From the NCBI RefSeq assembly GCF_023517775.1, contig NZ_CP082904.1, positions 3,844,001 through 3,908,000 of the forward strand: DNA of 64,000 nucleotides, written 5' to 3'. Within the stretch, counting starts at the first letter, position 1, and every line of letters begins with the position of its first letter. Made by a program: the position numbers and the translations under genes. The stretch is from Mixta hanseatica (GTDB lineage: Bacteria > Pseudomonadota > Gammaproteobacteria > Enterobacterales > Enterobacteriaceae). The notes beneath the pieces were generated by a model that saw only the letters and a program-made list of their open reading frames with translations, made no database searches and had not been told where the DNA came from. Positions 1 through 12,746 of this stretch are shown here, piece after piece.

Positions 1-725
1 TCCTCGCTCCAGCGCCCTAAGCCGTCACGGTTATCGCCGCGCAGGTTGCTGGCGGTCCAGCCATCAATCGGCGCATTGCTGCCGGCAAGATAATCACTGC
101 CTTTCGCGTCGTTCAGCGCTTTTTCCTGCATGGTAATGCTGCGAGGCGTGTGGCAGGCGCCACAGTGACCCAAGCCTTCCACCAGATAACGCCCGCGCGC
201 CAGTTCGGCATCCTCGCCCGCTTTCGGCTGAAACGCCTTCACATCCGGCGCGAAAATGCCACGCCAGATAGAGAGCGGCCAGCGCATCGACAGTGGCCAG
301 GGAATATCGCTCTCTTTATTCTGCTGCGCGACCGGGGCCACGCCGTGCATAAAGTAAGCGTACAGCGCCTGCATATCCTCGTCGCTTACCACCGCGTAAG
401 AGGGATAAGGCATTGCCGGATAAAGCGTATCGCCATTTTTTGCGATGCCGTGACGTACTGCTTTCTGGAAATCGTCATAGCTGTAGTCGCCGATACCGGT
501 TTTTTTATCGGGCGTGATATTGGTGGAATAGATCGTGCCGATCGGCGTCGCCATCGGCAGACCGCCGGCAAACGGCTGGCCTCCTTTGCTGCTGTGACAG
601 GCGACGCAGTCACCCGCGCGCGCCAGGTACTCGCCGCGCTTAATTAAATCGCCGCCCTGGTTATCAGCCGCCAGCGCGCCAGAGGCGGACGCCATCAGGC
701 ACAGCGCCAGTAATACCTTTTTCAT
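1..725 (-). CDS. Cytochrome c subunit of membrane-bound gluconate 2-dehydrogenase (3' end cut by window)
   Basis: Periplasmic c-type cytochrome that passes electrons from the flavoprotein subunit to the quinone pool. The protein begins MKKVLLALCLMASASGALA, a typical Sec signal peptide with an AxA cleavage site. About 240 residues are visible, with two haem-binding CxxCH motifs (CVACH near residue 41 and CGACH near residue 190). The family normally has three haems and about 430-450 residues, so the third haem and the C-terminus lie beyond the left edge. In-frame ATGs also occur at 734 and 731; 725 is chosen because the AAGG box then has normal spacing and MKK is the usual start of a signal peptide. 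It follows the flavoprotein gene by 11 bases, as the last gene of a three-gene operon. The exact substrate (gluconate, 2-ketogluconate or sorbitol) cannot be told from this subunit. Confidence 0.9.
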   Translation of the reverse strand, partial: MKKVLLALCLMASASGALAADNQGGDLIKRGEYLARAGDCVACHSSKGGQPFAGGLPMATPIGTIYSTNITPDKKTGIGDYSYDDFQKAVRHGIAKNGDTLYPAMPYPSYAVVSDEDMQALYAYFMHGVAPVAQQNKESDIPWPLSMRWPLSIWRGIFAPDVKAFQPKAGEDAELARGRYLVEGLGHCGACHTPRSITMQEKALNDAKGSDYLAGSNAPIDGWTASNLRGDNRDGLGRWSE

Positions 726-736
726 CGCCATCATCC

Positions 737-2518
737 TTATGCCTGCACCAGCGGTCCGGGGTTTTTCAGATACTGTTCACGAATCGCCTTCGCCGACCAG
801 TAAGTCAGCGCGGCGACCATACCGGTTGGGTTATAGCCCAGCCCCTGCGGGAAAGCAGATGCGCCCGGTACAAAAACATTCGGCACATCCCAGCTTTGCA
901 AATAGCGGTTCACCGCGCTGGTTTGCGGGTCCTCGCCCATGATCGCACCGCCGTTCATATGCGTGGTTTGATAAACCGTGGTGTCGAAATGGGTGCCCTG
1001 CACTTTCGGCGCGCCGATAATCTCTTTCGGGTTCATCGCTTCGGCAATTTTGCGCATTTTGCCGTGCATAAACTGCGACATTTTGATGTCGTTGTCCTGC
1101 CAGTCGAAAGTCATGCGCAGCAGCGGCTGACCGAAGGCATCTTTATAGTTCGGATCCAGGTCAAGATAGTTGGTGCGGTAAGACTGGTGTGCACCATGCG
1201 CATCCATAGAAACGTGGTGCGTATAGTGATCGGCCACCGCCGCTTTCCACTTGCTGCCCCAGCCTGGCGTGCCCTGCGGCACCGGTAGGCCGGAAATCGG
1301 CTTTACGCCCGCCTGGTTCACCCAGAAAGGCGAACCGCCGACAAAGCCGTATTTGCCGTGGTCGAAGTTATCGGCGTTGAAATCATCCACGCCGACGCCA
1401 GCGCCGCCCGCGCCGATAAAGTTGTTGGTATGCACATCTTTACCGAAGAACGCCTTAATGGTGGAGATGTTCTGATAGGCAAAGTTACGGCCCACCACGC
1501 CTTCGTTGGTAATGGGGTTGTAAGGCTTACCGATGCCGGAAAGCAGCATCAAATGCACGTTATGGAACTGGAAGGCGGAAAGGATGACCAGGTCCGCCGG
1601 CTGCTCAACCTGACGGCCCTGCGCATCCACATAGGTGACGCCAGTGGCGCGCTTTTTATCGTCGGTGAGGTTAACGCGCAGCACATGCGAGTTATCACGC
1701 AGTTCAAACTTTGGTTCCTGACGCAGCGCAGGCCAGATATTGACGTTCGGCGACGCCTTGGAATACATGTAGCAGGCATAGCCACTGCAGTAGCCACAGA
1801 AATTGCACGGCCCCATCTGCGCACCGTAGGTATTGGTGTAAGGCCCGGAAGTATTTGCCGAAGGCAGATCGTAAGGGTGATAACCCACCGATTCCGCCGC
1901 TTTGGCAAACAGCTGGGCGGAATAAGTCCGCTTCTGCGGCGGCAGTGGGAAATCATCCGAACGATCGGGCGCAAACGGGTTGCCGCGCCCCTGGCCGACG
2001 ACTTTGCCTTTGATGCTCCAGGCCGAGCCGGAGGTGCCGAATACCTTTTCCGCCTTGTCGAAAAACGGTTCCAGTTCGTCGTAGCTTACGCCAAAGTCCT
2101 GAATCGTCATCCCTTCCGGAATAAAGTTTTTGCCGTAACGCTCTTCGTAATGGCTGCGCATTCGCAGCTCAATCGGATCGACGCGGAAATGCACGCCTGA
2201 CCAGTGCAGGCCCGCGCCGCCAGTACCGGTGCCGGGCAGAAAGGCCGCCAGCTGACGATAGGGCTGCGCGGTCTGAGAGGGGTTATGCCGAATGGTCACG
2301 GTGCTTTTCGACAGATCCTGGAACAGCTTTTTGCGTACGTTATAGGTGAGCTCATCAATCACCTGCGGGTAAGCGCCGTCCGGCCAGGTATCGCGATGCG
2401 GGCCGCGCTCCAGCGCCACCACATGCAGTCCCGCTTCCGTCAGTTCTTTTGCCATAATCGACCCGGCCCAGCCGAAGCCGACAATCACCGCGTCTACTTT
2501 TTTCATCTGGTTTGCCAT
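737..2518 (-). CDS. Gluconate 2-dehydrogenase-type flavoprotein subunit (GMC oxidoreductase)
   Basis: Catalytic FAD subunit of a three-component periplasmic sugar-acid dehydrogenase, 593 residues, the usual family length. The N-terminus has the dinucleotide-binding pattern AVIVGFGWAGSIMAKEL (residues about 11-27). GGAGLHWSGVHFRVD follows near residue 105, and a four-Cys stretch (CNFCGYCSGYAC) near residue 245 is typical of this subgroup. The C-terminal half carries GMC_oxred_C features (THMNGGAIMGEDP, then YNPTGMVAALTYWSA). It has no signal peptide of its own; in this family it is carried across the membrane with the Tat-signal gamma subunit, whose gene ends 2 bases upstream. Family knowledge gives gluconate to 2-ketogluconate, or 2-keto- to 2,5-diketogluconate, as the likely reaction. 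The GntR-like operator upstream of the operon favours gluconate. Confidence 0.9.
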   Translation of the reverse strand: MANQMKKVDAVIVGFGWAGSIMAKELTEAGLHVVALERGPHRDTWPDGAYPQVIDELTYNVRKKLFQDLSKSTVTIRHNPSQTAQPYRQLAAFLPGTGTGGAGLHWSGVHFRVDPIELRMRSHYEERYGKNFIPEGMTIQDFGVSYDELEPFFDKAEKVFGTSGSAWSIKGKVVGQGRGNPFAPDRSDDFPLPPQKRTYSAQLFAKAAESVGYHPYDLPSANTSGPYTNTYGAQMGPCNFCGYCSGYACYMYSKASPNVNIWPALRQEPKFELRDNSHVLRVNLTDDKKRATGVTYVDAQGRQVEQPADLVILSAFQFHNVHLMLLSGIGKPYNPITNEGVVGRNFAYQNISTIKAFFGKDVHTNNFIGAGGAGVGVDDFNADNFDHGKYGFVGGSPFWVNQAGVKPISGLPVPQGTPGWGSKWKAAVADHYTHHVSMDAHGAHQSYRTNYLDLDPNYKDAFGQPLLRMTFDWQDNDIKMSQFMHGKMRKIAEAMNPKEIIGAPKVQGTHFDTTVYQTTHMNGGAIMGEDPQTSAVNRYLQSWDVPNVFVPGASAFPQGLGYNPTGMVAALTYWSAKAIREQYLKNPGPLVQA

Positions 2519-2520
2519 GC

Positions 2521-3261
2521 TTATGCTCTTTCTCCACGAATCGATACCGCCGGGAAGGGATAACGCTCGCCGCGCTCCACCCAGTCCATAAAATCAGCGC
2601 GCGCGCCCGGGAAGCCGATTAGCTTCCAGCCCACCATGTGCTGATTGCCGCCGTGCAGCGGATCGCAGAAAAAGCCTTCGCGGGTATTTTGCAGCAGATA
2701 AGCAAAGAAAACTTTTGCCGGCAGCTGTTTAAAGCTCGCCTTGTTACTTTCAAAGTCGCCCAGCAGCGCGTCCTGCTGCTCTGGTGTCAGCGCGGCAAAG
2801 GCTTTGCCATGCTGCTGTTTCGCCCAGCCATCCGCTTCCGCAATGCCAAGACGATAAATCTGCTGCGGTACCAGCGGCAGTTGATAGCCCAGCTCTTTCG
2901 GCGCATCAGGATCGAACGGTCCCTGCATATACCAGTTGTTGCCGATGGCATACGGCGTATTCATCTGACGATCGATAAATTCAGGCACGCCCGCTTCCAG
3001 CGCGCCGGGCCCACGTTCGTCAGCCGGAATTAACCGGGCGACGGCCGCTTTGATAAAGGCGAATTCCTCAGCGGAAAACCAGACGGGCTGGTAATCGCGA
3101 GCGGTTTGCGGGCCGGCAGGCGGTGCGCTATCGGCAGCCTGTGCCTTATTGCTGAGCCCCAGTGCCCCAATTCCGGTGGTGCCCATCGCCACAGCAGGTG
3201 CCAGGGTGATGGTTTTCAGGAGAAAGTCTCTCCTGGAAGTGCTTGTTTTATTTTGCGACAT
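2521..3261 (-). CDS. Gluconate 2-dehydrogenase gamma subunit with Tat signal
   Basis: Small subunit of the three-component dehydrogenase, 246 residues. The N-terminus has a clear twin-arginine signal ([19 protein letters not shown], residues about 9-27), so the folded flavoprotein-gamma complex is expected to be exported through Tat. The rest matches the gluconate_2-dh3 family: an early [23 protein letters not shown] segment-type motif that recurs in the family, and conserved Trp and Gly positions around WYMQGPF. It is the first gene of the operon gamma - flavoprotein - cytochrome c. The 5' region holds a perfect palindrome resembling the GntR operator about 100 bases before the start codon. 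No oddities were seen. Confidence 0.88.
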
Positions 3262-3358
3262 GACATTGCCTTAGCGCTCGTGGGTAACGGCGCAACGATT
3301 AATCCTGGTTGTTATTTTAATCATCAGTAATTGAAGGATTTTTCCGGCAGCAAACCAT

Positions 3359-3374
3359 TTGTTACCGGTAACAA
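3359..3374. promoter_or_regulatory. Palindrome resembling the GntR (gluconate repressor) operator
   Basis: TTGTTACCGGTAACAA is a perfect 16-bp palindrome. It matches the core TGTTACCGGTAACA that I associate with LacI-family GntR/IdnR operators in enterobacteria. It lies about 85-100 bases before the start of the gluconate dehydrogenase operon, a sensible place for a repressor. The link to GntR is from memory of the motif; no gntR gene is in the window. Confidence 0.6.
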
Positions 3375-3770
3375 TGGCGCGCATTGTAACAGCTATTTGG
3401 TAAAATATTTAGCTTCGACAAACAAAAAATCTCAACTTTTTTAACATTAAGCTGACATCCTGGGAGCTGAAGCCCACCCGTACGAAAACGTACGCTACGT
3501 GTTTTTTGTACAACCAGCTATGGCCGTCGCGTAGTTCATCCGTGCAAAGGCAAACATGTGCAGCCCTGTTAACTTCAGGCGTTCCAGTAACGAACCAAAG
3601 CGTACTACTGCTGGCTGACCGGAATAGGCGTGAGCGCGCTGCCAGGGAAAGATTATGTTAATAGCGTCGAATATGCCAAAATTGCGCGACAGAGCGAAAA
3701 CTGACGAAGGTGAATGGTCAGATAGAGGCGTGGAGTAGCGAGAATCGTTAAATTTAAACATGTTATATAT
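3375..3770. other. Stretch without a recognisable gene
   Basis: Between the dehydrogenase promoter and the microcin-like locus. There is a short perfect hairpin, CGTACG-AAAA-CGTACG, at 3479-3494. An 88-codon open frame on the minus strand (3495-3761) begins MFKFNDSRYSTPLSD; I do not recognise its translation, and it lies downstream of a terminator, so it may be a decayed fragment rather than a gene. Confidence 0.4.
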
Positions 3771-3812
3771 AATATCACCTCTTTTCCGTTTAAAGGAAAA
3801 AGAGGTGATATT
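3771..3812 (-). terminator. Strong hairpin ending the microcin-like operon
   Basis: Arms AATATCACCTCTTTTCC and GGAAAAAGAGGTGATATT pair over about 17 bp with one bulged A. The loop is short and AT-rich, with T/A-rich flanks on both sides. It lies 33 bases after the end of the restored microcin-like frame and could act in both directions. Confidence 0.7.
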
Positions 3813-3844
3813 TAAAAGTTGTTAATATTGCTATATTTTAACGT

Positions 3845-4133
3845 TTAAAAGCGAGGGTAAAAGGCTGGCCCTGTCGGCTTATACCACGGCAGTACATTAT
3901 TTATCGGATCAATCACAACATTAGGAGGTATGGTAATAGTTTTTCTACCATTATCATATGCGAGCCCCCCCCAAATAACTACCGACAGCGGAACCAACAG
4001 CCTGACCTCCTGGTATTTTAGTGACATGGCCGATCCCGCCCCCGATCAGCGTTCCTGTCAACTGCGCTATATCCCTGTCATTTTGAGATGCCCCAGTCAC
4101 AATCTCAAGATCATTTTTATTTAACTTTTTCAT
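3845..4133 (-). pseudogene. Microcin-like (class II bacteriocin) precursor, frame broken at a G8 tract
   Basis: The start ATG at 4133 follows GAGGAGATAAAA. The peptide begins MKKLNKNDLEIVTGA, which has the look of a double-glycine-type leader ending in GA, as in microcins H47, L and E492. After the presumed cut it is glycine-rich (GTLIGGGIGHV; AVGSAVGSYLGG). As read, the frame stops at 3954 after 59 codons, just after a run of eight G (3965-3972). With seven G the frame runs on through AYDNGRKTITIPPNVVIDP to the end at 3845, giving 95 residues (about 80 mature). This continuing frame is open and ends 33 bases before a strong terminator, so the longer product is probably the true one. The locus lies in AT-rich DNA unlike its neighbours. 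No exporter (CvaA/CvaB type) is in the window. Bacteriocin function is inference from leader, composition and gene order. Confidence 0.6.
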
Positions 4134-4329
4134 TTTTATCTCCTCTATAAGATTTATACACAGCGGGCACTACGTTGAATATTATTGTTGCAATTAATGC
4201 AAACAATAATTTTATGAAGATATCGTCTATCTCCCGTAGTTTCTTATAAGAGGAAGGATCGGTTAGTAACATTACAAACAGAAAAAATAAATAATTAAAA
4301 AAAATCTCCCTCACCATTTTTCTCATCAT
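4117..4329 (-). CDS. Small membrane protein, possible microcin immunity protein
   Basis: About 70 residues beginning MMRKMVREIFFNYLFFLFVML. It has two predicted membrane segments (about residues 9-21 and 35-52) joined by a charged loop, and a lysine-rich tail. The ATG at 4329 is chosen because GAGGGATGG lies directly before it; a longer frame from 4377 has no clear ribosome site. Its 3' end overlaps the start of the microcin-like gene by 17 bases, so the two are translationally coupled. The same arrangement, immunity gene first and overlapping the toxin gene, is known for microcin V (cvi/cvaC). I do not recognise a family from the sequence; the immunity role rests on size, topology and position. 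Confidence 0.55.
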   Translation of the reverse strand: MMRKMVREIFFNYLFFLFVMLLTDPSSYKKLREIDDIFIKLLFALIATIIFNVVPAVYKSYRGDKNEKVK

Positions 4330-4360
4330 CCATCCCTCTTTTTCATAAAAAATAACTTTA

Positions 4361-4573
4361 TTAATTTTTATAGTCAATTTTTTTGATTTTTAATTTCGCA
4401 ATTAATTGTTGATAATATATTATTTTATATCTTTTATAATTAAACGAATTATCGGGCTCTGATGCAGGAGGAAAGCTGGCCATACGCATTGTGTCACCCC
4501 AGTATTGTTCTATCTTCCACCTATTAGCTGCGCTGCGAGCAAGAGCATTCAGCGCGCTGTAACGGCTGCTCAC
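4361..4573 (-). CDS. Unrecognised small ORF upstream of the microcin-like pair
   Basis: Seventy codons from a GTG start preceded by a good GGAGGG ribosome site. The first half (SSRYSALNALARSAANRWK, then QYWGDTMRMASFPP) has normal base composition. The second half (YKRYKIIYYQQLIAKLKIKK) is AT-rich and lysine-rich, so it may be a fusion across the edge of an inserted segment. It is in line with the immunity-like gene, which starts about 30 bases later, and could be the first gene of the same transcript. The family is unknown. It might also be only a remnant. Confidence 0.3.
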   Translation of the reverse strand: MSSRYSALNALARSAANRWKIEQYWGDTMRMASFPPASEPDNSFNYKRYKIIYYQQLIAKLKIKKIDYKN

Positions 4574-4634
4574 AACCCTCCACAGACTGTTAACACCGCC
4601 CAGGCTATAACAGAGCTCTTTTCGTGGAGGGCTT

Positions 4635-5861
4635 ATGTTTAGTTGTTTTTTCCCCAGGCCTGGGCTGTTTTTCAGTACGGCGGCACTGTTCAGCCTGGCC
4701 GCGATCGTTTGTTGGTTTACCGAAGCGAGCCAGCTGGTGTTTCATCTGGCGGCCTTCTCCGCCTGGGCCGGGCAGTCGCTACCCGATAATGCCTGGCGCT
4801 TTGTACAGCCCGGCGAGCTGTGGTTTTATCTCTATTTCGCCCTGATGACGGCGCTGTTCGCCACAGCCTGGTTTATCTTTAGCCCGCATCCGTGGCAGCG
4901 CTGGTCGGTGCTGGGCTCGGCGCTGATTCTGTTTATGACCTGGTTTGACGTGCAGGTTGGCGTGGCGATTAACGCCTGGTATGGGCCGTTTTACGACCTG
5001 GTTCAGCGTGCCCTAAGTCAAGCGGGCTCGGTCGCACTGGCGGCTTTTTATCAGCAGATCGGCGCTTTTCTCAGTATTGCGCTGATCGCAGTGGTGATCG
5101 GCGTGCTTAACGCCTTTTTTATCAGCCATTGGGTGTTTCGCTGGCGTACGGCAATGAACGATCGCTATATGGCGCACTGGCCGCAGCTACGTCACGTTGA
5201 AGGCGCTGCACAACGCGTTCAGGATGACACCATGCGTTTTTCCAGCACGCTGGAGGATTGGGGCGTGGGCCTGATCCAGGCAATTATGACGCTGGTGGCA
5301 TTTTTACCGGTGTTGGTCACGCTATCGAAGCATGTCAAAAGCGTTTCCCTGCTGGGCGATATGCCATATGGGCTGGTAGTAGCGGCTCTGCTGTGGTCGC
5401 TGTTTGGCACCACGCTGCTGGCGCTGGTCGGCATTAAGCTGCCGGGACTGGAATTCCGTAACCAACGGGTAGAGGCCGCCTGGCGTAAAGAGCTGGTGTA
5501 TGGCGAAGATGATCCTCAGCGTGCCGCGCCAGCCACGGTGAAAAAGCTGTTTAGCCGGGTGCGCTATAACTATTTTCGTCTGTGGTTTCACTACCTTTAT
5601 TTCAACGTTACCCGCATTCTTTATCTGCAGGTTGATAATGTTTTTGGGGTGTTCATCCTGTTTCCGGCGATTATTGCCGGTACCCTAACGCTGGGGTTGC
5701 TTCAGCAGATCACCAATGTTTTCGACCAGGTGCGCGCCTCCTTCCAGTATTTAATTATGTCCTGGTCAACGCTGGTATCCCTGATGTCCATTTACAAACG
5801 CCTGCGCAGTTTCGAGCGCGTTATAGACGGTAAAGCCGACTCTGCCACGCTGGCTGAATAA
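4635..5861 (+). CDS. sbmA: Peptide antibiotic transporter SbmA
   Basis: Inner-membrane importer of peptides such as microcin B17, microcin J25, proline-rich antimicrobial peptides and bleomycin; driven by the proton gradient. The protein is 408 residues (E. coli 406) and close to E. coli SbmA throughout. Recognisable blocks include FISHWVFRWRTAMNDRYMAHW, GAAQRVQDDTMRF, GIKLPGLEFRNQRVEAAWRK, ELVYGEDD and the C-terminal SIYKRLRSFE. About seven membrane segments are visible. A GTGGAGGG ribosome site lies 4 bases before the ATG. The usual E. coli neighbour yaiW is absent. Instead the gene is divergent from the microcin-like locus, separated by only about 60 bases. Confidence 0.96.
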   Translation: MFSCFFPRPGLFFSTAALFSLAAIVCWFTEASQLVFHLAAFSAWAGQSLPDNAWRFVQPGELWFYLYFALMTALFATAWFIFSPHPWQRWSVLGSALILFMTWFDVQVGVAINAWYGPFYDLVQRALSQAGSVALAAFYQQIGAFLSIALIAVVIGVLNAFFISHWVFRWRTAMNDRYMAHWPQLRHVEGAAQRVQDDTMRFSSTLEDWGVGLIQAIMTLVAFLPVLVTLSKHVKSVSLLGDMPYGLVVAALLWSLFGTTLLALVGIKLPGLEFRNQRVEAAWRKELVYGEDDPQRAAPATVKKLFSRVRYNYFRLWFHYLYFNVTRILYLQVDNVFGVFILFPAIIAGTLTLGLLQQITNVFDQVRASFQYLIMSWSTLVSLMSIYKRLRSFERVIDGKADSATLAE

Positions 5862-5964
5862 GACAATAGAATTACGAGCCGCTACGCAGAATCGATAACT
5901 TATTCATTATCCACAGTCGTTTTGCTGTTACTGCCTCAGCAACTGTTCAAAAATAGCTCAGGAG

Positions 5965-6002
5965 CCGCCGATGTTGACAACCGTCAACATCGGCGGTAAA
6001 TT
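5965..6002 (+). promoter_or_regulatory. Promoter with built-in 14-bp palindrome (autoregulation site)
   Basis: A perfect inverted repeat, CCGCCGATGTTGAC and GTCAACATCGGCGG with a 4-base loop AACC, covers 5965-5996. The left arm contains a perfect -35 box, TTGACA (5974-5979). Exactly 17 bases later comes TAAATT (5997-6002), a 4/6 match to the -10 box. Transcription would start near 6009, 15 bases before the ATG at 6024. A repressor bound to the palindrome would cover -35 and spacer, which fits autoregulation by the operon's own DNA-binding protein. Confidence 0.7.
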
Positions 6003-6023
6003 AGCCTTTGTCCAGGATGGATA

Positions 6024-6266
6024 ATGAAAAAGCATCCCAATAAACATGTTCAGGCCGCAATTGAGTATGCCTTGCTGTATGGCTGGCATTTTCGCCCCTC
6101 GAAAGGGCATGCATTTGGTCGACTGATCTGTGCGATACCCGAGCATAGCGAGCATCAAATCAGCATTTGGTCTACGCCGCGCGTGCCTGAACATCATGCG
6201 GAGCAAATCCGCCGCAAGGTAAATAGCTGTGCGGTTGATGTTGCGCCTCACATCAGGAGGAACTGA
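6024..6266 (+). CDS. HicA-like small protein, candidate toxin of a two-gene module
   Basis: Eighty residues, basic and histidine-rich. The segment ALLYGWHFRPSKGHAFGRLICA followed by a strand (QISIWSTPRVP) and a final helix resembles the small double-stranded-RNA-binding fold of HicA-type mRNA interferases, where a conserved Gly-His pair forms the active site (here KGHAFGR, residues about 37-43). The resemblance is my reading of the pattern, not a search result. The stop codon overlaps the next start by one base (TGATG), so the two genes are coupled. The promoter carries a palindromic operator. It could instead be an unrelated small RNA- or DNA-binding protein. Confidence 0.6.
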   Translation: MKKHPNKHVQAAIEYALLYGWHFRPSKGHAFGRLICAIPEHSEHQISIWSTPRVPEHHAEQIRRKVNSCAVDVAPHIRRN

Positions 6267-6817
6267 TGGTTTATCACTTTACCCTCACGCTTGCCGGCGT
6301 GACTGCCCACACGCCAGGGCTGGAAGATGCGCTTTTTGAATGCGGCTGCGATGATGCCCTGCTCTGTTTTTACGGAAATACGGTTTACCTGGAATTCGAT
6401 CGTGAAAGCAGCAGCTTTGAACAGGCGTTGCTGAGCGCTATCGCTGATATTGAAAACAGCGCGTTATCGGTACGCGTGGCGTCCGTTGATGCCACGCTGC
6501 TGGGCTTGAGCGATATTGCTCAACGCAGCCAGCTGTCACGTCAGGCGATTGCGATGTTAAAAGATGGCACGCGCGGGCCAGGTACGTTCCCGGCGCCGGT
6601 CCAGCGGCTTACCGGCTCTTCACCCCTGTGGCGCTGGGCCAGCGTCGCGCGCTGGCTGTATGAAAACGGCAAGCTCAGCGCTGAACTGGCGGAAAATGCC
6701 CAGATAATGGAAAACATTAATCTGGCGCTGACGCTACGAGCAACGCCGCAGCGCCAGTATGTGACGCAGCTGGCGGCACGCCTGGCAGAGCGCACCGAAC
6801 CACGTGGCGTTATTTAA
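6266..6817 (+). CDS. Helix-turn-helix protein, candidate antitoxin/repressor partner
   Basis: A protein of 183 residues. The N-terminal half (about 1-75) is an alpha/beta region rich in acidic residues. The middle (about residues 80-130) holds a helix-turn-helix of the MerR/AlpA excisionase look: LGLSDIAQRSQLSRQAIAML, then DGTRGPGTFPAPV, then a conserved Trp pair, LWRWASVARWL. In a toxin-antitoxin reading the N-terminus would bind the upstream 80-residue protein and the HTH would bind the palindrome in the promoter. An AGGAGGA ribosome site precedes the ATG. The gene meets the dihydroxyacetone kinase gene tail to tail with an 8-base overlap. I do not recognise a named family. Confidence 0.65.
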   Translation: MVYHFTLTLAGVTAHTPGLEDALFECGCDDALLCFYGNTVYLEFDRESSSFEQALLSAIADIENSALSVRVASVDATLLGLSDIAQRSQLSRQAIAMLKDGTRGPGTFPAPVQRLTGSSPLWRWASVARWLYENGKLSAELAENAQIMENINLALTLRATPQRQYVTQLAARLAERTEPRGVI

Positions 6818-8447
6818 GCGCGGCGAACACCCGCTCAACGGCGTAAGCGCCCGGGTCCTTAACGCCGTTCAGGCTATCCTGATTCAGATAAGAAGAGCGG
6901 CCGGCCCTGGCGGCGCTCATGCTGGCCGTCGACTCGGCGCCCTGATGAGCGGCGGCGGCGGCCTCGTTTAACCCTTTCCCCTCGACCAGCGCCTGCAAAG
7001 CCGGCTCCAGCGCATCAACCAGCGTTCTATCGCCAATGCGCGCGCCACCGTAGTGTTTCATCCGATCCAGCCCGGCCATCAGCGCCTGCGGCAGAGGTTT
7101 GCCCTGTTCCAGCTGCTGTCCGGCCGCGGTAAACATAATCGACATTAATACGCCGCTGGAACCCCCCATTACCACCGCTAACTGTTCGCCCACCAGCGTT
7201 AACAAACGCGCTGGCTCATTGAAAGGCAACGCTTGTTGCTGGCTACCCTGTAAAATCTTGCGCGCGCCGGCGGCAAAGGTAGAGCCGGTATCGCCATCGC
7301 CCACTTTGGCATCCAGCTTATTCAGCTCGCTTTCAAGATCCACCAGCGTTTGACATACCTTATCCACCACACGCTGTACGGCGGCGTTGGCGGAAGGCTG
7401 CGCCTGCGGCGGACGCTTAATCTCTTCGCCTTTTATCGTTGAGGGCGCAACCAGCTGCTCTACGGTCTGCCAGCCGCTGGCCTCTACCGGCGCCTGCAGC
7501 GCACGCAGCCGTTCTTCATCCAGCAGTAGCGTCGTTAAAGAAAAACCTTTCATGTCCAGCGAGCTGACCAGCGTCGCCGGACCAATCAGATGGCTCAGTT
7601 GCTTTGCCAGGGGTGAACGCAATGCTTCCCGTGCCAGCACGCTCAGTTCCAGCATAGAGAAGCCGCCGAGGTTATTGATCAGTAGCAGCGCCTGTTTATC
7701 TTCCGGCACCTTTTCCGCCAGTTTTTCCGCCATGATCTGCACAATTTCCCGACTGTTCTGCGTTTTTAGCGTCGTCACGCCCGGCTCGCCGTGAATGCCC
7801 ATTCCCAGCTCGCTTTCCCCTTCCGCCACACGATTATCCTGTGGCTCGCCGGGGATATGGCAGGTGGCAAACGCCAGACCGATACTGGCGGTATCCGCGA
7901 TGGCCTGCTGGGCGCGCTGCGTGACCTCCTCCAGCGAAGCGCCCTGTTCGGCGTAGTAACCGGCCAGCTTATGAATCAATACGGTGCCGGCCAGGCCGCG
8001 CGGCTGCGGATTATCCGGCAGCGCAATATCATCTTTTACGATCGCCAATTCGACTTTGTAGCCCAGCGCGCGCGCCTTCTCCGCCGCCAGGCCGAAATTT
8101 AGCCGGTCGCCGGTATAGTTTTTCACGATCAGCAAACAGCCTGCTTCGCCGGTGACATTGATAATGGCGCTAAGCACCGCATCCACGCTGGGCGAGGCGA
8201 AAACATCGCCGCACACGGCAGCGGTGAGCATGCCTTTGCCTACAAAGCCCACATGCGCTGGCTCATGGCCGGATCCGCCGCCGGAAATCAGCGCTACCTT
8301 GCGCTTATCCCAGTCGTTACGCACCACTACGCGAATCCCCTCTCCAGCATCAAGCCGGCTCAGGTTATGGAAAGGCGTGGTCATTAACGCGCCTTCAATC
8401 GCTTCGTTCACCAGTTCGCTTTTTTCGTTCATGAAAAACTGACTCAT
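6810..8447 (-). CDS. ATP-dependent dihydroxyacetone kinase (DhaK-DhaL fusion)
   Basis: Phosphorylates dihydroxyacetone (and glyceraldehyde) with ATP, feeding glycerol or triose metabolism in the cytoplasm. The 545-residue protein joins a DAK1 domain (about 1-330) to a DAK2 domain (about 355-545). The DhaK part has SGGGSGHEPAHVGFVGKGML and the substrate-binding His in GMGIHGEPGV. The DhaL part has the magnesium-nucleotide motif LDAKVGDGDTGSTFAAGA and later VMGGSSGVLMSIMF. The fused form uses ATP, unlike the PTS-linked DhaKLM of E. coli, and no dhaM is present. The ATG at 8447 follows AGAGAGGAAACC; a longer frame to 8489 lacks a ribosome site. No glycerol dehydrogenase gene is adjacent. Confidence 0.93.
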   Translation of the reverse strand: MSQFFMNEKSELVNEAIEGALMTTPFHNLSRLDAGEGIRVVVRNDWDKRKVALISGGGSGHEPAHVGFVGKGMLTAAVCGDVFASPSVDAVLSAIINVTGEAGCLLIVKNYTGDRLNFGLAAEKARALGYKVELAIVKDDIALPDNPQPRGLAGTVLIHKLAGYYAEQGASLEEVTQRAQQAIADTASIGLAFATCHIPGEPQDNRVAEGESELGMGIHGEPGVTTLKTQNSREIVQIMAEKLAEKVPEDKQALLLINNLGGFSMLELSVLAREALRSPLAKQLSHLIGPATLVSSLDMKGFSLTTLLLDEERLRALQAPVEASGWQTVEQLVAPSTIKGEEIKRPPQAQPSANAAVQRVVDKVCQTLVDLESELNKLDAKVGDGDTGSTFAAGARKILQGSQQQALPFNEPARLLTLVGEQLAVVMGGSSGVLMSIMFTAAGQQLEQGKPLPQALMAGLDRMKHYGGARIGDRTLVDALEPALQALVEGKGLNEAAAAAHQGAESTASMSAARAGRSSYLNQDSLNGVKDPGAYAVERVFAALK

Positions 8448-8602
8448 GGTTTCCTCTCTGTGTTGACTCGCCCAGGCACAGCGGCGCAAAACGTTAACTG
8501 TAGTTGAAGCTGTCAGGGATTCGACAGCGAATGTCAGTTATGCAGGCGCATGCAGCGGTTAATTGCTGAAAAATGAACAGACCAATTACCAGGGAGGCCT
8601 GT

Positions 8603-10294
8603 ATGCTGCAATATCCAAACGAAAAGTATCGCCCTTTCACTCCAATATCGCTGCGCGATCGCCGCTGGCCGGAACACGTTCTGCAACAGGCGCCGCGTTG
8701 GTTATCTACCGATTTACGCGACGGTAATCAGGCGCTGGCGGAGCCGATGGACAGTGAACGTAAGCTGCGTTTCTGGGAGCTGTTGTTGCAGTGCGGCTTT
8801 CGTGAAATAGAAGTGGCGTTTCCATCCGCGTCACAAACGGACTTTGATTTTGTGCGCCAACTGATTGAAGAGGAACGTATTCCCGAACAGGTCACGATTC
8901 AGGTACTTACTCAGGCGCGTGAGGATCTGATTGATCGTACGTTCGATGCGTTACGCGGCGCAAAGCGCGCCACCATACATCTGTATAACGCCACAGCGCC
9001 ACTGTTTCGCCGCGTGGTTTTCAGACAGAGCCAGGAGGAGATTATTCATCTGGCTGTGAGGGCGACGCAGCGTATTCGGCAACATTGCGAAGCACACCCC
9101 GAAACCAGCTGGAGCTTTGAGTATTCGCCAGAGACCTTCTGTTTTACCGAAGCGGAGTTTGCGCTACAGATTTGCGAAGCGGTCGCAGATGTCTGGCAAC
9201 CCTGCGCCGAGCGCCCCATGATCGTTAACCTGCCTGCTACCGTTGAAGTCAGTACGCCTAATGTTTATGCCGATCAGATTGAACATTTCTGCCGTCACTT
9301 TACCTGGCGTCAGGCGGTATGCATTAGCGTTCATCCTCATAACGATCGGGGAACCGGCATCGCCTGCGCGGAGCTGGCACTGCTGGCCGGAGCGGATCGT
9401 ATTGAAGGCTGTCTGTTCGGTAACGGTGAACGTACCGGAAACGTCGATCTGATTACGCTGGCATTGAATCTTTATACTCAGGGCATCGCGCCGGAACTGA
9501 ACTTTAGCCAGATGGATCAGATTATTGAGGTGGTCACAGAGTGCAATCAGCTGCCGGTCCATCCACGACATCCCTATGCGGGAGAACTGGTGTTTACTGC
9601 TTTTTCCGGTTCGCATCAGGATGCCATTAAAAAAGGTTTTGCCGCGCGGCAGCCTGGCAGTGCCTGGGAAATACCCTATCTGCCACTCGATCCGGCAGAT
9701 ATTGGACGCAACTATGCGGCGATTATTCGCGTTAATAGTCAGTCCGGCAAAAGTGGGGCCGCCTGGATGATTGAACAAAACCATGGTTTGGCGTTACCAC
9801 GCGCGCTTCAGCAGGATTTTAGCCAGCGCGTACAGTACGAGAGCGATCGCAGCGGCAAAGAGATGACCTTATCGTCGCTGTGGCAGCTATTCCGCCATGC
9901 CTATGGTTTACACGATACAATGCCACTACTCTTACACAGTTATAGCACACAAAGCGCCGCCAGCGGTGAGCTGTTGCTTAGCGCCGATCTAATGGTAAAA
10001 GGTAAATTAATTGCGGTGACAGGACACGGTAATGGCCTGCTCTCTAGCGCCGTCGATGCGCTACGCAGTGCATTCCATCAAGAGTTAACCATCCTGGACT
10101 ATCATGAACATACTCTGGGCCAACATAGCGATAGCCGTTCTGCCGCTTATCTGTGCTGTACACTGGCTGACGGCAGCGTAACCTGGGGCGTAGGGATCGA
10201 TCAGGATGTGGCTCGCGCATCGCTTCAGGCGTTACTCCATGCCTCGGCGGCTCAGCTTTTCTCTGCGTCGCAGCCTGAGTCTGAAAGAAAATAA
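8603..10294 (+). CDS. leuA: 2-isopropylmalate synthase, orphan long-type copy
   Basis: Condenses acetyl-CoA with 2-oxoisovalerate, the first step of leucine synthesis. The 563-residue protein has the catalytic barrel first: STDLRDGNQALAEPM near residue 35, metal ligands in SVHPHNDRGTG near 255, then GCLFGNGERTGNVDL. A C-terminal LeuA allosteric dimer domain follows (about 430-560). The length and the YRPFTPISLRDRRWP opening fit the long type found in actinobacteria and some proteobacteria rather than the 523-residue enterobacterial LeuA. No leuBCD or leader peptide is nearby. The ATG at 8603 is preceded by GGGAGG at good spacing. The 3' end overlaps the convergent AraC gene by 43 bases. It may serve as a second synthase with another regulation or substrate. 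Confidence 0.88.
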   Translation: MLQYPNEKYRPFTPISLRDRRWPEHVLQQAPRWLSTDLRDGNQALAEPMDSERKLRFWELLLQCGFREIEVAFPSASQTDFDFVRQLIEEERIPEQVTIQVLTQAREDLIDRTFDALRGAKRATIHLYNATAPLFRRVVFRQSQEEIIHLAVRATQRIRQHCEAHPETSWSFEYSPETFCFTEAEFALQICEAVADVWQPCAERPMIVNLPATVEVSTPNVYADQIEHFCRHFTWRQAVCISVHPHNDRGTGIACAELALLAGADRIEGCLFGNGERTGNVDLITLALNLYTQGIAPELNFSQMDQIIEVVTECNQLPVHPRHPYAGELVFTAFSGSHQDAIKKGFAARQPGSAWEIPYLPLDPADIGRNYAAIIRVNSQSGKSGAAWMIEQNHGLALPRALQQDFSQRVQYESDRSGKEMTLSSLWQLFRHAYGLHDTMPLLLHSYSTQSAASGELLLSADLMVKGKLIAVTGHGNGLLSSAVDALRSAFHQELTILDYHEHTLGQHSDSRSAAYLCCTLADGSVTWGVGIDQDVARASLQALLHASAAQLFSASQPESERK

Positions 10295-11040
10295 TCACTG
10301 GGCGTGCTGCCCATAATACGGCGGAACATAGCGCTGAAAGCACTGGGGCTGTCATAGCCTAGCTCCAGTGCCACGGTCGTTACCGGGTCGCCTTGCGCCA
10401 GACGGATCAACGCGGCCATTAATCTTGCCCTTCTAACCCACTCGCTAAAATTCAGGCTGGTTTGCTGGTAGAAACGGCGTGACAGCGTGCGTTCGCTCAC
10501 ACTCAACTGTTGCGCTGCTTTTTTTACCGTCCAATTCTCGCCTGGCTGCGCCTGTATTTGCTGACAAAAAGTTATTAACGCGCCGCTCTGCGGCTGCGGC
10601 AAATAAAATGGCAAAGCGGGCAAAACACGAATTTCATCAAGAATTAATTCATAGATACGCTCAGTACGACTGCCAGGGAGACAGGACTCTGGCAGCGATA
10701 GTGCGCTGACAATTAGCTCACGAAGCAGCGGAGAAATCTGTACTACCTGACAGCTGGCCGGCAGATCGGCACGGGCTAAGGGATCGATAAACAGCGTGCG
10801 CGCCGCCACTTGCCCTGTAATATCAAGAGCGTGTTGCGTACCTGCGGGTAGCCAGACGCCACGGCTGGGCGGCACTACCCAGTTGCCAAACCGGGTATGT
10901 ACCCGAATCACGCCGCTTAACGTATGGATAAGCTGGGCACAGCTGTGATAGTGGAGAGGCTCTCTGTCGCCGTGTTGGTAGTCGTGCGCCAGCGGCACTA
11001 ACGGACGGGAAGCGAAAGAGAAATCGATCTGTTTAGTCAT
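10252..11040 (-). CDS. AraC-family regulator with N-terminal cupin domain
   Basis: A 262-residue transcription factor. The N-terminal cupin (about 10-100) includes LHYHSCAQLIHTLSGVIRVHT and WVVPPSRGVWLPAGTQH. The C-terminal double helix-turn-helix (about 165-255) includes VKKAAQQLSVSERTLSRRF and VALELGYDSPSAFSAMFRRI, followed by TPSDYF. This layout is like E. coli NimR (YeaM), which controls a divergent transporter; no such transporter lies next to it here. The target is unknown; the tail-overlapping leuA-like gene is one candidate. The ATG at 11040 is used; a TTG at 11052 is an alternative. Confidence 0.88.
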   Translation of the reverse strand: MTKQIDFSFASRPLVPLAHDYQHGDREPLHYHSCAQLIHTLSGVIRVHTRFGNWVVPPSRGVWLPAGTQHALDITGQVAARTLFIDPLARADLPASCQVVQISPLLRELIVSALSLPESCLPGSRTERIYELILDEIRVLPALPFYLPQPQSGALITFCQQIQAQPGENWTVKKAAQQLSVSERTLSRRFYQQTSLNFSEWVRRARLMAALIRLAQGDPVTTVALELGYDSPSAFSAMFRRIMGSTPSDYFLSDSGCDAEKS

Positions 11041-11170
11041 TATGTCATGCAAGATTGCAGGAAAACATTACCTTAGCATTTCCTTCTACGTAGATGCATC
11101 AGGCTGACGGCATAACCGGAATTCAACCAAATGCCGCTGCCCGGATCACGGACAGATAAAAAGAACGCCC

Positions 11171-11195
11171 AAAACGCCGGGCAGCGCGCCCGGCG
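11171..11195 (-). terminator. Terminator after aer
   Basis: A perfect 8-bp stem, CGCCGGGC with GCCCGGCG and a 5-base loop, followed in the minus-strand direction by TTTT. It lies 6 bases past the aer stop codon. Confidence 0.75.
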
Positions 11196-11201
11196 CAGGG
11201 A

Positions 11202-12746
11202 TTAACGGAAAACGCTAATCGCTTCGACCAGACGCGTGGCCTGGCGCGTCATACGCCCTGAGGCTTCAGCCCCTTCCAGTACGCGCGCCGCGTTTTGATG
11301 GGTGATATCGTCTAGATTTTCTACCGCCAGGCTGACCTCACTCAGGGCGGTCGCCTGCTCTGCCGTGGCGGCGCTAATCTGACCAATCAGCGTGGAAACA
11401 TCCTGTACCCGTTCTACAATCTCCTGCATGGTACTGCCGGTCTGATTAACCTGCCCGGTGCCGGTTTCCACCCGCAGCACGCTGGTTTCCACCAGCGTTT
11501 TGATTTCGCTGGCCGCTTTGGCGCTACGGCTTGCCAGGTTACGCACCTCGCCAGCCACGACTGCGAACCCTTTGCCCTGCTCGCCGGCCCGCGCCGCCTC
11601 AACCGCCGCATTCAATGCCAGAATGTTGGTCTGAAAGGCGATGCTGTCGATCACGCTGATAATACTGGCGATCTTTTTCGAGCTTTCCGCAATCTCGCTC
11701 ATGGTATTAACCATTTCGCGCATCGACGCACCGCCTTTTTTCGCCGCCTCGCTGGTGGTGATGGAAAGCTGATTGACCTCTGATGCGCTCTCTGTATTGC
11801 TTTTTACCGTGGCGGTCATTTCGTTCATGGTCGCTGCGGTTTGCTGAACGTTGGCGGCCGCCTGCTCGGTACGCTGACTCAGCTCATCGTTACTGCGCGC
11901 CATCGCATCGCTGGCGCTCATCACATTAATCGCCTGTCCGCTGACATCATCCACCAGCCAGCGAAACATCAGGCCAAGCTGGCCGATGGCGCGCAGCGTG
12001 GTGCCGACCTCATCTACCCGATCCATCAAATCAACTTTATGGCTATTGCCGGTGGCAACGTTAAGCGCCTGCTGACAAACCCGCTCAAGCGGTCGGGAGA
12101 TCTGCTGCTCCAGCCAGGCGCTGGCCAGCAATAACAGCAGAGCCATGCCAACGCTGAACATGCCCAGCACGCCCGCCGTCACACCCAATGCCCAGACGCC
12201 AGCAATCGTTAACGGCAGCAGCGCCAGCAGCGTAGAGCGAATGCGCCAGCGTAGCGGCATGGTCTTGAAAACAGAACGCCAGCGTCGCCAGCCGCTGTAA
12301 ACCAGCAGACCCTGATGCAGTCTGCGGCCTTTATGACGCCCGGCACGAAAATCACCGTACAGCGCTTCCGCCTCATCAATTTCCGCTTTGGTCGGTTTGG
12401 TTCGTACCGACATATAGCCATGCGCGGCGCCGTTACGCATCACCGGAATAGCATTCGCCCGAACCCAATAGTGGTCGCCATTCTTACGCCGGTTCTTTAC
12501 CAGCGCCGTCCAGGGCAGGCCCTGCTTCAGCGTGGTCCACATATCGGCGAAGGCTTCAGGCGGCATATCCGGATGCCGCACCATATTATGCGGCTGGCCG
12601 TTGATCTCATCTGGGGTAAAGCCGCTCACATCAATAAACGCATCGTTGGCATAGGTTATGTAACTGTTAAGGTCAGTAGTCGACATCAGCGTCGCGTCAT
12701 CGCTAAACGCAAACTCCTGATGTGTGACGGGTTGATTGTTACGCAT
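11202..12746 (-). CDS. aer: Aerotaxis receptor Aer
   Basis: Senses redox state through FAD and steers swimming by way of CheW/CheA. The 514-residue protein (E. coli 506) begins with a PAS domain (about 5-115) that carries [21 protein letters not shown] and NMVRHPDMP, both typical of Aer. A hydrophobic membrane anchor lies at about 165-210 ([19 protein letters not shown] onward), then HAMP and the cytoplasmic signalling domain with the conserved hairpin [21 protein letters not shown]. There is no periplasmic domain, as expected for Aer. The ATG at 12746 follows CAAGGAATTATTTC; an upstream extension to 12821 has no support. Single gene with its own terminator. Confidence 0.95.

What the first reader, a model, noticed from the sequence alone, without database searches (positions are those of the whole stretch)
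3771..4573. Undescribed microcin-like locus: leader peptide gene, overlapping membrane immunity candidate, terminator
Seen directly: a peptide beginning MKKLNKNDLEIVTGA with a glycine-rich body, an upstream two-helix membrane ORF whose 3' end overlaps the peptide gene by 17 bases, ribosome sites for both, and a strong hairpin at the end, all in AT-rich DNA. Known: class II microcins have leaders ending GG or GA, glycine-rich cores, and immunity genes that can overlap the toxin gene (cvi/cvaC). Inference: this is a small class II microcin operon not resembling a named microcin in its core. It lacks its own exporter, so it would depend on a peptidase-containing ABC transporter elsewhere.
Basis: partly seen in the sequence, partly recalled or inferred. 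Interest (0 to 1): 0.85.

Follow-up and report, generated by a model that had tools for sequence, protein, structure and literature searches.

The report
Microcin gene broken at variable G-run
A Mixta bacterium carries a small acquired gene pair for an antibacterial peptide and its likely protector, but here the peptide gene is out of frame at a run of eight Gs whose length seems to differ between related sequences, so the cell probably keeps the protection without making the whole weapon.

Summary
It is a microcin V-like (class II microcin) pair on the minus strand: a two-helix immunity candidate (4117-4329) overlapping the microcin gene (start 4133) by 17 bases, then a strong hairpin. It sits in an AT-rich island of about 1.1 kb, missing at the same site in 5 of 5 sister Mixta genomes whose site I could examine. 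Two C39-peptidase exporters lie elsewhere in the genome, one in a full export operon.

A run of eight G (3965-3972) puts it out of frame, giving 59 residues instead of 95. A full-length form exists in public sequences (P0001). The lost part holds residues conserved in 28 relatives (Yersinia, Serratia, Raoultella and unnamed) and corresponds in position to microcin V's receptor-binding part. The window's form and three others imply at least four lengths of the run, so it slips readily. Whether this is an evolved on/off switch or plain decay is open; I favour decay slightly. A switch would be new for an enterobacterial microcin as far as my limited literature searches show.

The parts
4117..4329 (-). 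Immunity candidate, 70 aa, two hydrophobic segments; overlaps the microcin gene by 17 bases
   Evidence: one public cluster, 99% identical, 8 member sequences, 4 contigs
3954..4133 (-). Microcin precursor gene as read in this genome, 59 aa: leader MKKLNKNDLEIVTGA, then a glycine-rich body
   Evidence: MccV profile below cut-off; P0002 is this same form, its longest contig having the length of the window's own contig
3965..3972 (-). Run of eight G at which the frame is lost; length inferred to differ among related public proteins
3845..3964 (-). Out-of-frame remainder of the microcin gene: the C-terminal (uptake-type) part that the full-length public form has
3771..3812 (-). Strong hairpin after the gene; probable terminator (inferred)
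   Evidence: z -6.8; not listed by the consensus scan
4349..4377 (-). Promoter-like site upstream of the immunity candidate (9 of 12 matches; 6 sites found against 3.1 expected in the region, so not evidence by itself)
3460..4551 (.). AT-rich island absent at the same site in 5 of 5 sister species examined; edges approximate
   Evidence: composition
4478..4552 (.). Transposon-like remnant at the island edge, about 80% identical to plasmid DNA annotated as Tn3 family transposase in 8 of the 12 listed records (15 in all)
   Evidence: protein-level search of the 70-aa ORF found nothing

Best explanation
This is a horizontally acquired, exporter-less class II (microcin V-like) microcin/immunity pair. 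In its full-length form the precursor has a 15-residue leader ending GA (to be cut by a C39 exporter), a glycine-rich antibacterial part acting at the inner membrane, and a C-terminal part that docks on an outer-membrane receptor of the target cell. The upstream two-helix protein protects the producer. A resident CvaAB/TolC-like operon, whose ABC protein is found in 6 of 8 Mixta genomes, would export it. In this genome the run of eight G near the joint of the two parts puts the gene out of frame: the cell makes leader plus glycine-rich part but not the uptake part, so immunity is kept and the working weapon is not made. The run slips, as related sequences point to several lengths. Shown: the frames, family conservation, the empty site, exporter genes, several forms among public proteins. 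Inferred: run lengths of the other forms, antibacterial action, immunity, use of that exporter, receptor role of the C-terminus, loss of activity.
For: MccV profile E 0.00029 (read-through, residues 1-62) and 0.00069 (59-aa form), both below Pfam's cut-off. 28 further relatives; 12 have a genus in a source's name: 8 Yersinia, 2 Raoultella, 2 Serratia. Columns invariant in 29 rows include Y59, D60, T67, P69, all after the G run. An HMM of the 28 relatives without P0001 scores the 95-aa form 58.6 bits, the 59-aa form 44.1, the 73-aa form 43.8; of the three frames behind the run only the full-length one scores positively, weakly (7.6 bits; one other -3.0, the third not listed). Public forms: P0001 95 aa, P0002 59 aa (the window's own), P0003 73 aa, P0004 59 aa in another frame. 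Overlapping cvi-like upstream ORF. Empty site in 5 of 5. Exporters: two C39 ABC proteins; one stands with HlyD-type and TolC-type genes and its own GG-leader peptide and occurs in 6 of 8 Mixta genomes, this one included. Closest well-kept relative locus, L010: upstream 78-aa hydrophobic ORF, microcin, then a CvaA-like gene (by eye).
Against: P0001 scores below Pfam's MccV cut-off (20.9 against 27) and matches no NCBIfam model; in the genome-wide MccV search this genome had no match at E<=0.01 (12 of 20 candidates scored). No cysteine (class IIa hallmark) and no Ser/Gly-rich tail (class IIb). The immunity candidate has no homologue outside its own cluster. No activity is shown. Structure model of low confidence (mean pLDDT 54). 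DNA of the other forms could not be read; run lengths are inferred from protein letters.
Confidence: 0.82

Rival explanations
1. Plain decay: the orphan microcin is no longer needed, and the G run is simply the place where it broke, more than once. The immunity gene persists because it still protects or has not had time to go. (This rival shares the identity claim of the best explanation and concerns the meaning of the broken frame.)
For: Other family members are broken by unrelated damage: a stop at codon 2 of the leader and, by eye, a CvaA-CvaB deletion fusion in the G176 locus; only a C-terminal remnant in G228; truncated P0031. Of the four forms only one is full-length.
Against: The letters behind the run are the same in the window, P0001, P0003 and P0004, each in its own frame, while all differences seen between forms lie before it; the 95-aa cluster holds 4 of the 8 member sequences; repeated hits on one 8-base place are not expected of random decay.
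Confidence: 0.45
2. Evolved on/off switch (contingency locus): slippage in the G run flips cells between immune producers and immune non-producers.
For: At least four run lengths implied by the window's form and three others; one of only 7 chromosomal runs of eight or more G/C; the run lies near the joint of antibacterial and uptake parts and downstream of the immunity gene, so immunity is never lost; in the Neisseria nap island the GG-leader peptides NapR (poly-G of 6-12) and NapC (poly-T; class II microcin-like) are described as likely phase-variable (section 5 and passages of PMC11798529).
Against: Eight G is short for a fast switch; the two relatives whose DNA I read have no run longer than four in the gene; no within-clone data; three of four forms are off; related loci are decayed.
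Confidence: 0.3
3. Assembly or sequencing error in the run; the isolate is really in frame.
For: Homopolymers are error-prone; another gene of this genome, a radical-SAM-like maturase (named by eye), is also frameshifted near a run of six A.
Against: Of the six other chromosomal runs, three lie inside frames of 667, 477 and 453 codons that stay open across them (one more lies in a 132-codon frame that ends just behind it, two in none). P0003 and P0004 are off forms from other sequences and the P0002 cluster holds 2 member sequences.
Confidence: 0.15
4. The short 59-aa product, or a mixture made by RNA-polymerase slippage on the G run, is the functional output.
For: The short form keeps leader and glycine-rich body.
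Against: 27 of 28 relatives keep a full C-terminal part (P0031 is cut short).
Confidence: 0.06

Closest known systems
Microcin V (cvi/cvaC), class II microcin of E. coli
   Same: Immunity gene upstream of and overlapping the toxin gene (PMC13174018 passage); profile match over residues 1-62; C-terminal part of similar length (microcin V receptor-binding domain: 32 residues, PMC12511343 passages)
   Different: No exporter genes alongside; no cysteines; different C-terminus; below the Pfam cut-off; frame lost at a G run here
Uncharacterised microcin-like proteins of Yersinia, Serratia, Raoultella and unnamed sources (P0006-P0033)
   Same: Aligned over the whole length, sharing the YD...ITIP...P pattern
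   Different: Yersinia-type members have longer tails with cysteines; no long G run in the two relatives whose DNA I read, L009 and L010
Neisseria nap island peptides (NapR, NapC)
   Same: GG-leader peptides in an AT-rich acquired island with length-variable homopolymer tracts (PMC11798529, section 5 and passages)
   Different: Sequences not compared here; reported to act in self-lysis without activity on competitors; tracts near the 5' end
Pantoea/Erwinia class II microcin candidates (PMC13174018)
   Same: Nearby genera; immunity ORFs adjacent or overlapping in the six described in section 18
   Different: Those had exporter components in the same genome, in most cases nearby; the words Mixta, frameshift, pseudogene and orphan do not occur in the main text. 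Their sequences were not compared with this one

Membership tests
Class II microcin | Leader of about 15 residues ending GG or GA | tested here: met
   MKKLNKNDLEIVTGA; G14 in all and L4 in at least 90% of 29 aligned rows; cleavage not tested
Class II microcin | Adjacent immunity gene for a small inner-membrane protein | tested here: inconclusive
   Adjacent overlapping 70-aa ORF with two hydrophobic segments; protection not testable here
Class II microcin | Export by C39-peptidase ABC exporter, HlyD-type adaptor and TolC | tested here: inconclusive
   None at the locus; a set elsewhere in the genome; use by this peptide not shown
Class II microcin | Complete precursor with antibacterial and uptake parts | tested here: not met
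   Not met by the window's copy (59 aa); met in form by public protein P0001, 95 aa
Microcin V family (Pfam PF17508) | Score at or above the gathering cut-off of 27 bits | tested here: not met
   20.6 (59 aa), 21.8 (read-through), 20.9 (P0001) bits; no match for this genome; 12 of 29 family members match at E<=0.001
Class IIa microcin | Cysteines for disulfide bonds (called a hallmark in PMC13174018, 'permissible' in PMC12511343) | tested here: not met
   No cysteine in P0001-P0004
Class IIb microcin | Ser/Gly-rich C-terminus and siderophore-attachment genes nearby | tested here: not met
   No such tail in P0001; no such genes by eye among ORFs of 1-9000, not profile-searched
Phase-variable (contingency) gene | Reversible tract-length change within a clone | not testable with these tools
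   Only variation between sequences, inferred from proteins
Bacteriocin | Inhibits sensitive relatives | not testable with these tools
   No assay

The most novel reading that the evidence does not exclude
A bet-hedging microcin: a slipping G run placed near the joint of the antibacterial and uptake parts, downstream of a never-affected immunity gene, lets a Mixta population switch cell by cell between armed and unarmed while every cell stays immune. As far as my literature searches show it would be the first such switch in an enterobacterial microcin.
Probability: 0.28. Interest if true: 0.65.

Novelty: new member of a known kind. Interest (0 to 1): 0.42.

Why it matters
It adds an uncharacterised branch of microcin V-like peptides (Mixta, Yersinia, Serratia, Raoultella) and a concrete case in which an antibacterial gene is out of frame at a slipping run while its immunity gene stays whole. 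If reversible, it makes testable how populations ration costly antibacterial weapons. It also warns that frame-based gene calling splits such microcins: the protein database holds four different predicted proteins for what looks like one gene.

Tried and rejected
Named-genome scan for the microcin: 104 stretches matched a pattern, none confirmed. Viral contigs: 24 stretches, none confirmed. Plasmids by protein: none. So no DNA of the other forms could be read. Genus Mixta: microcin in 1 of 8 genomes, this one. Genome-wide MccV-profile search: 20 of 392 genomes at E<=0.01, 5 over the cut-off, this genome not among them (the other hits were not followed up apart from L009-L011 found). Of the 5 of 392 genomes, the G310 hit lies in a 640-codon frame and was set aside as unrelated. 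Plasmid DNA of this genome to name the organism: only general enterobacterial plasmids; the genus came. Naming the 4361-4573 ORF as transposase by protein: no match, only DNA similarity. The 3462-3517 end matches plasmid DNA in 48 records, the 12 listed ones without annotation; not identified. Exchanger, DctA and BofA profile hits of the immunity candidate are below cut-offs and read as chance hydrophobic matches. Ribosomal frameshifting as the normal route: a one-base backward slip leads to the 73-aa type of frame, not the conserved one, so unlikely. Structure model: low confidence, so no fold search. Literature for an enterobacterial example: searches (3 papers; 42 papers, 15 listed; 1; 0; 2): none seen in listings; only PMC11798529 of these was opened. 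Mixta with microcin: 4 papers listed, none opened.

Full report
WHAT IS THERE. On the minus strand, an ORF of 70 codons (4117-4329) with two hydrophobic segments overlaps by 17 bases an ORF of 59 codons (3954-4133) that starts MKKLNKNDLEIVTGA; a 17-pair hairpin follows (z -6.8). The block 3771-4470 has 34% G+C against 56-57% around it.

WHERE IT CAME FROM. The genome is a Mixta: one of the unnamed same-genus genomes (G007) has a contig of the same length and gene position as a record named Mixta theicola. Of 8 genomes of the genus searched, this one included, 6 have the neighbouring gene, which Pfam calls SbmA/BacA-like. In the 5 sisters among these, window flanks up to about 3459 and from about 4551 align to places only 26-33 bases apart. 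The two sisters without the neighbouring gene were not examined there. None of the 7 sisters has the microcin. Hence an acquired island of about 1.1 kb.

WHAT THE PEPTIDE IS. The 95-residue reading matches Pfam MccV over residues 1-62 at E 0.00029, the 59-residue form at 0.00069, both under the curated cut-off. The genome-wide MccV search gave no match for this genome at E<=0.01. The first protein search found 4 proteins: P0001 (95 aa), P0002 (59 aa, the window's own form), P0003 (73 aa), P0004 (59 aa in another frame). A profile search with three rows found 32 proteins at E<=0.01; 29 of the 32 were aligned (P0002, P0003 and P0004 were left out). Twelve of the 28 relatives carry a source name with a genus: 8 Yersinia, 2 Raoultella, 2 Serratia. 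Of the 29, 12 match MccV at E<=0.001 and none matches an NCBIfam model at E<=0.01. In 392 genomes of the family the three-row profile matched 14 at E<=0.001, 11 of these only in the leader and glycine-rich half; the single 95-aa sequence matched 5 of 392, this genome included and one hit set aside.

THE FRAME IS BROKEN. Columns invariant in all 29 rows include Y59, D60, T67 and P69. In the window these lie in another frame than the leader: the two frames meet at a run of eight G, 3965-3972. An HMM of the 28 relatives without P0001 gives the 95-aa form 58.6 bits, the 59-aa form 44.1 and the 73-aa form 43.8; behind the run only one frame scores above zero, weakly (7.6 bits). So the full-length form is most likely the ancestral one and the 59-residue peptide a truncated reading. 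A full-length form exists in public sequences.

THE RUN VARIES. The letters of P0001, P0003 and P0004 can each be explained by the window's DNA with another run length; with the window's own they imply at least four lengths between five and nine. This is inferred from proteins; I could not read their DNA. The clusters hold 4, 2, 1 and 1 member sequences; the immunity cluster holds 8. Only forms of about 52-166 residues could be found by that search. Runs of eight or more G or C number 11 in this genome (12 overlapping matches), 7 of them chromosomal, against about 250 from base composition alone (a naive figure). Of the 6 other chromosomal runs, 3 lie in frames of 453 codons or more that stay open across them, 1 in a 132-codon frame that ends just behind it, 2 in none; this argues against general miscalling of such runs. 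Against that, a radical-SAM-like gene (named by eye) of the same genome is frameshifted near six A.

WHAT IS LOST. In microcin V the 32 C-terminal residues are the receptor-binding domain (passages of PMC12511343), and class II microcins are described as an N-terminal antibacterial part plus a C-terminal uptake part (section 18 of PMC13174018; passage of PMC13101503). By position the break removes the uptake part and leaves leader and glycine-rich part; carrying this over to the Mixta peptide is inference. The immunity candidate lies upstream and is untouched, so such cells should be immune non-producers (inference). In the closest well-kept relative locus (L010) a hydrophobic 78-aa ORF precedes the microcin and a CvaA-like gene follows (by eye).

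EXPORT. Two C39-type ABC exporters are encoded in this genome. One operon has TolC-type, HlyD-type and C39-ABC genes and its own 104-aa GG-leader peptide; its ABC protein is found in 6 of 8 Mixta genomes, this one included, at 87% identity or more. The other stands beside a short GG-leader peptide and the frameshifted radical-SAM-like gene. By eye the first has the leader type closer to this peptide; that it serves the peptide is inference.

SWITCH OR DECAY. For a switch: several lengths, a rare kind of run, its place near the joint of two parts, an untouched immunity gene, unchanged letters behind the run in all four forms, and the precedent of the Neisseria nap island (section 5 and passages of PMC11798529), where the GG-leader peptide genes napR (poly-G of 6-12) and napC (poly-T) are called likely phase-variable. 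For decay: related loci elsewhere are plainly damaged (a stop at codon 2 and, by eye, an exporter deletion fusion in G176; a C-terminal remnant in G228 whose DNA similarity to the window begins at its own run of six G; truncated P0031), three of the four forms are off, eight G is short, and the two relatives read at DNA level have no such run. I put decay at 0.45, an evolved switch at 0.3, assembly error at 0.15. Searches for a described enterobacterial example showed none in their listings (one search listed 15 of 42).

STRUCTURE. AlphaFold2 on the 29-row alignment gave mean pLDDT 54: helices at 17-37 and 43-62, then coil; too weak to use.

Noticed in passing
L008 (G000:C1:4279000-4296000), 3858-9880: Microcin-type export operon (LuxR-like regulator by eye; TolC-type, HlyD-type and C39 ABC by Pfam) with a 104-aa GG-leader glycine-rich peptide: a second candidate microcin of this genome.
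   Followed up: partly
L007 (G000:C1:2892000-2908000), 4565-9521: Short GG-leader peptide with an aromatic/Arg-rich core, a radical-SAM-like gene split by a frameshift near six A, HlyD-type and C39 ABC genes: looks like a XyeA/triceptide-like peptide cluster; that name is recalled, not tested.
   Followed up: partly
L045 (G176:C1:562000-578000), 8265-11670: Decayed microcin locus: a family member with a stop at codon 2, a CvaA-CvaB-like deletion fusion (292 aa, by eye), and a second leader-type peptide with a Ser/Gly-rich tail (95 aa).
   Followed up: partly
L046 (G228:C1:3992000-4006000), about 7828-7903: C-terminal remnant of a close relative (53% over 41 residues) whose DNA similarity to the window begins at its own run of six G.
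   Followed up: partly
window 3462-3517: Island end similar (about 84%) to plasmid DNA without annotation in the listed records (48 records in all); possibly an insertion-element end.
   Followed up: no
window 4635-5861: SbmA/BacA-type gene directly beside the island; importers of this family take up other antibacterial peptides (recalled). No link shown; sisters have the gene without the island.
   Followed up: no
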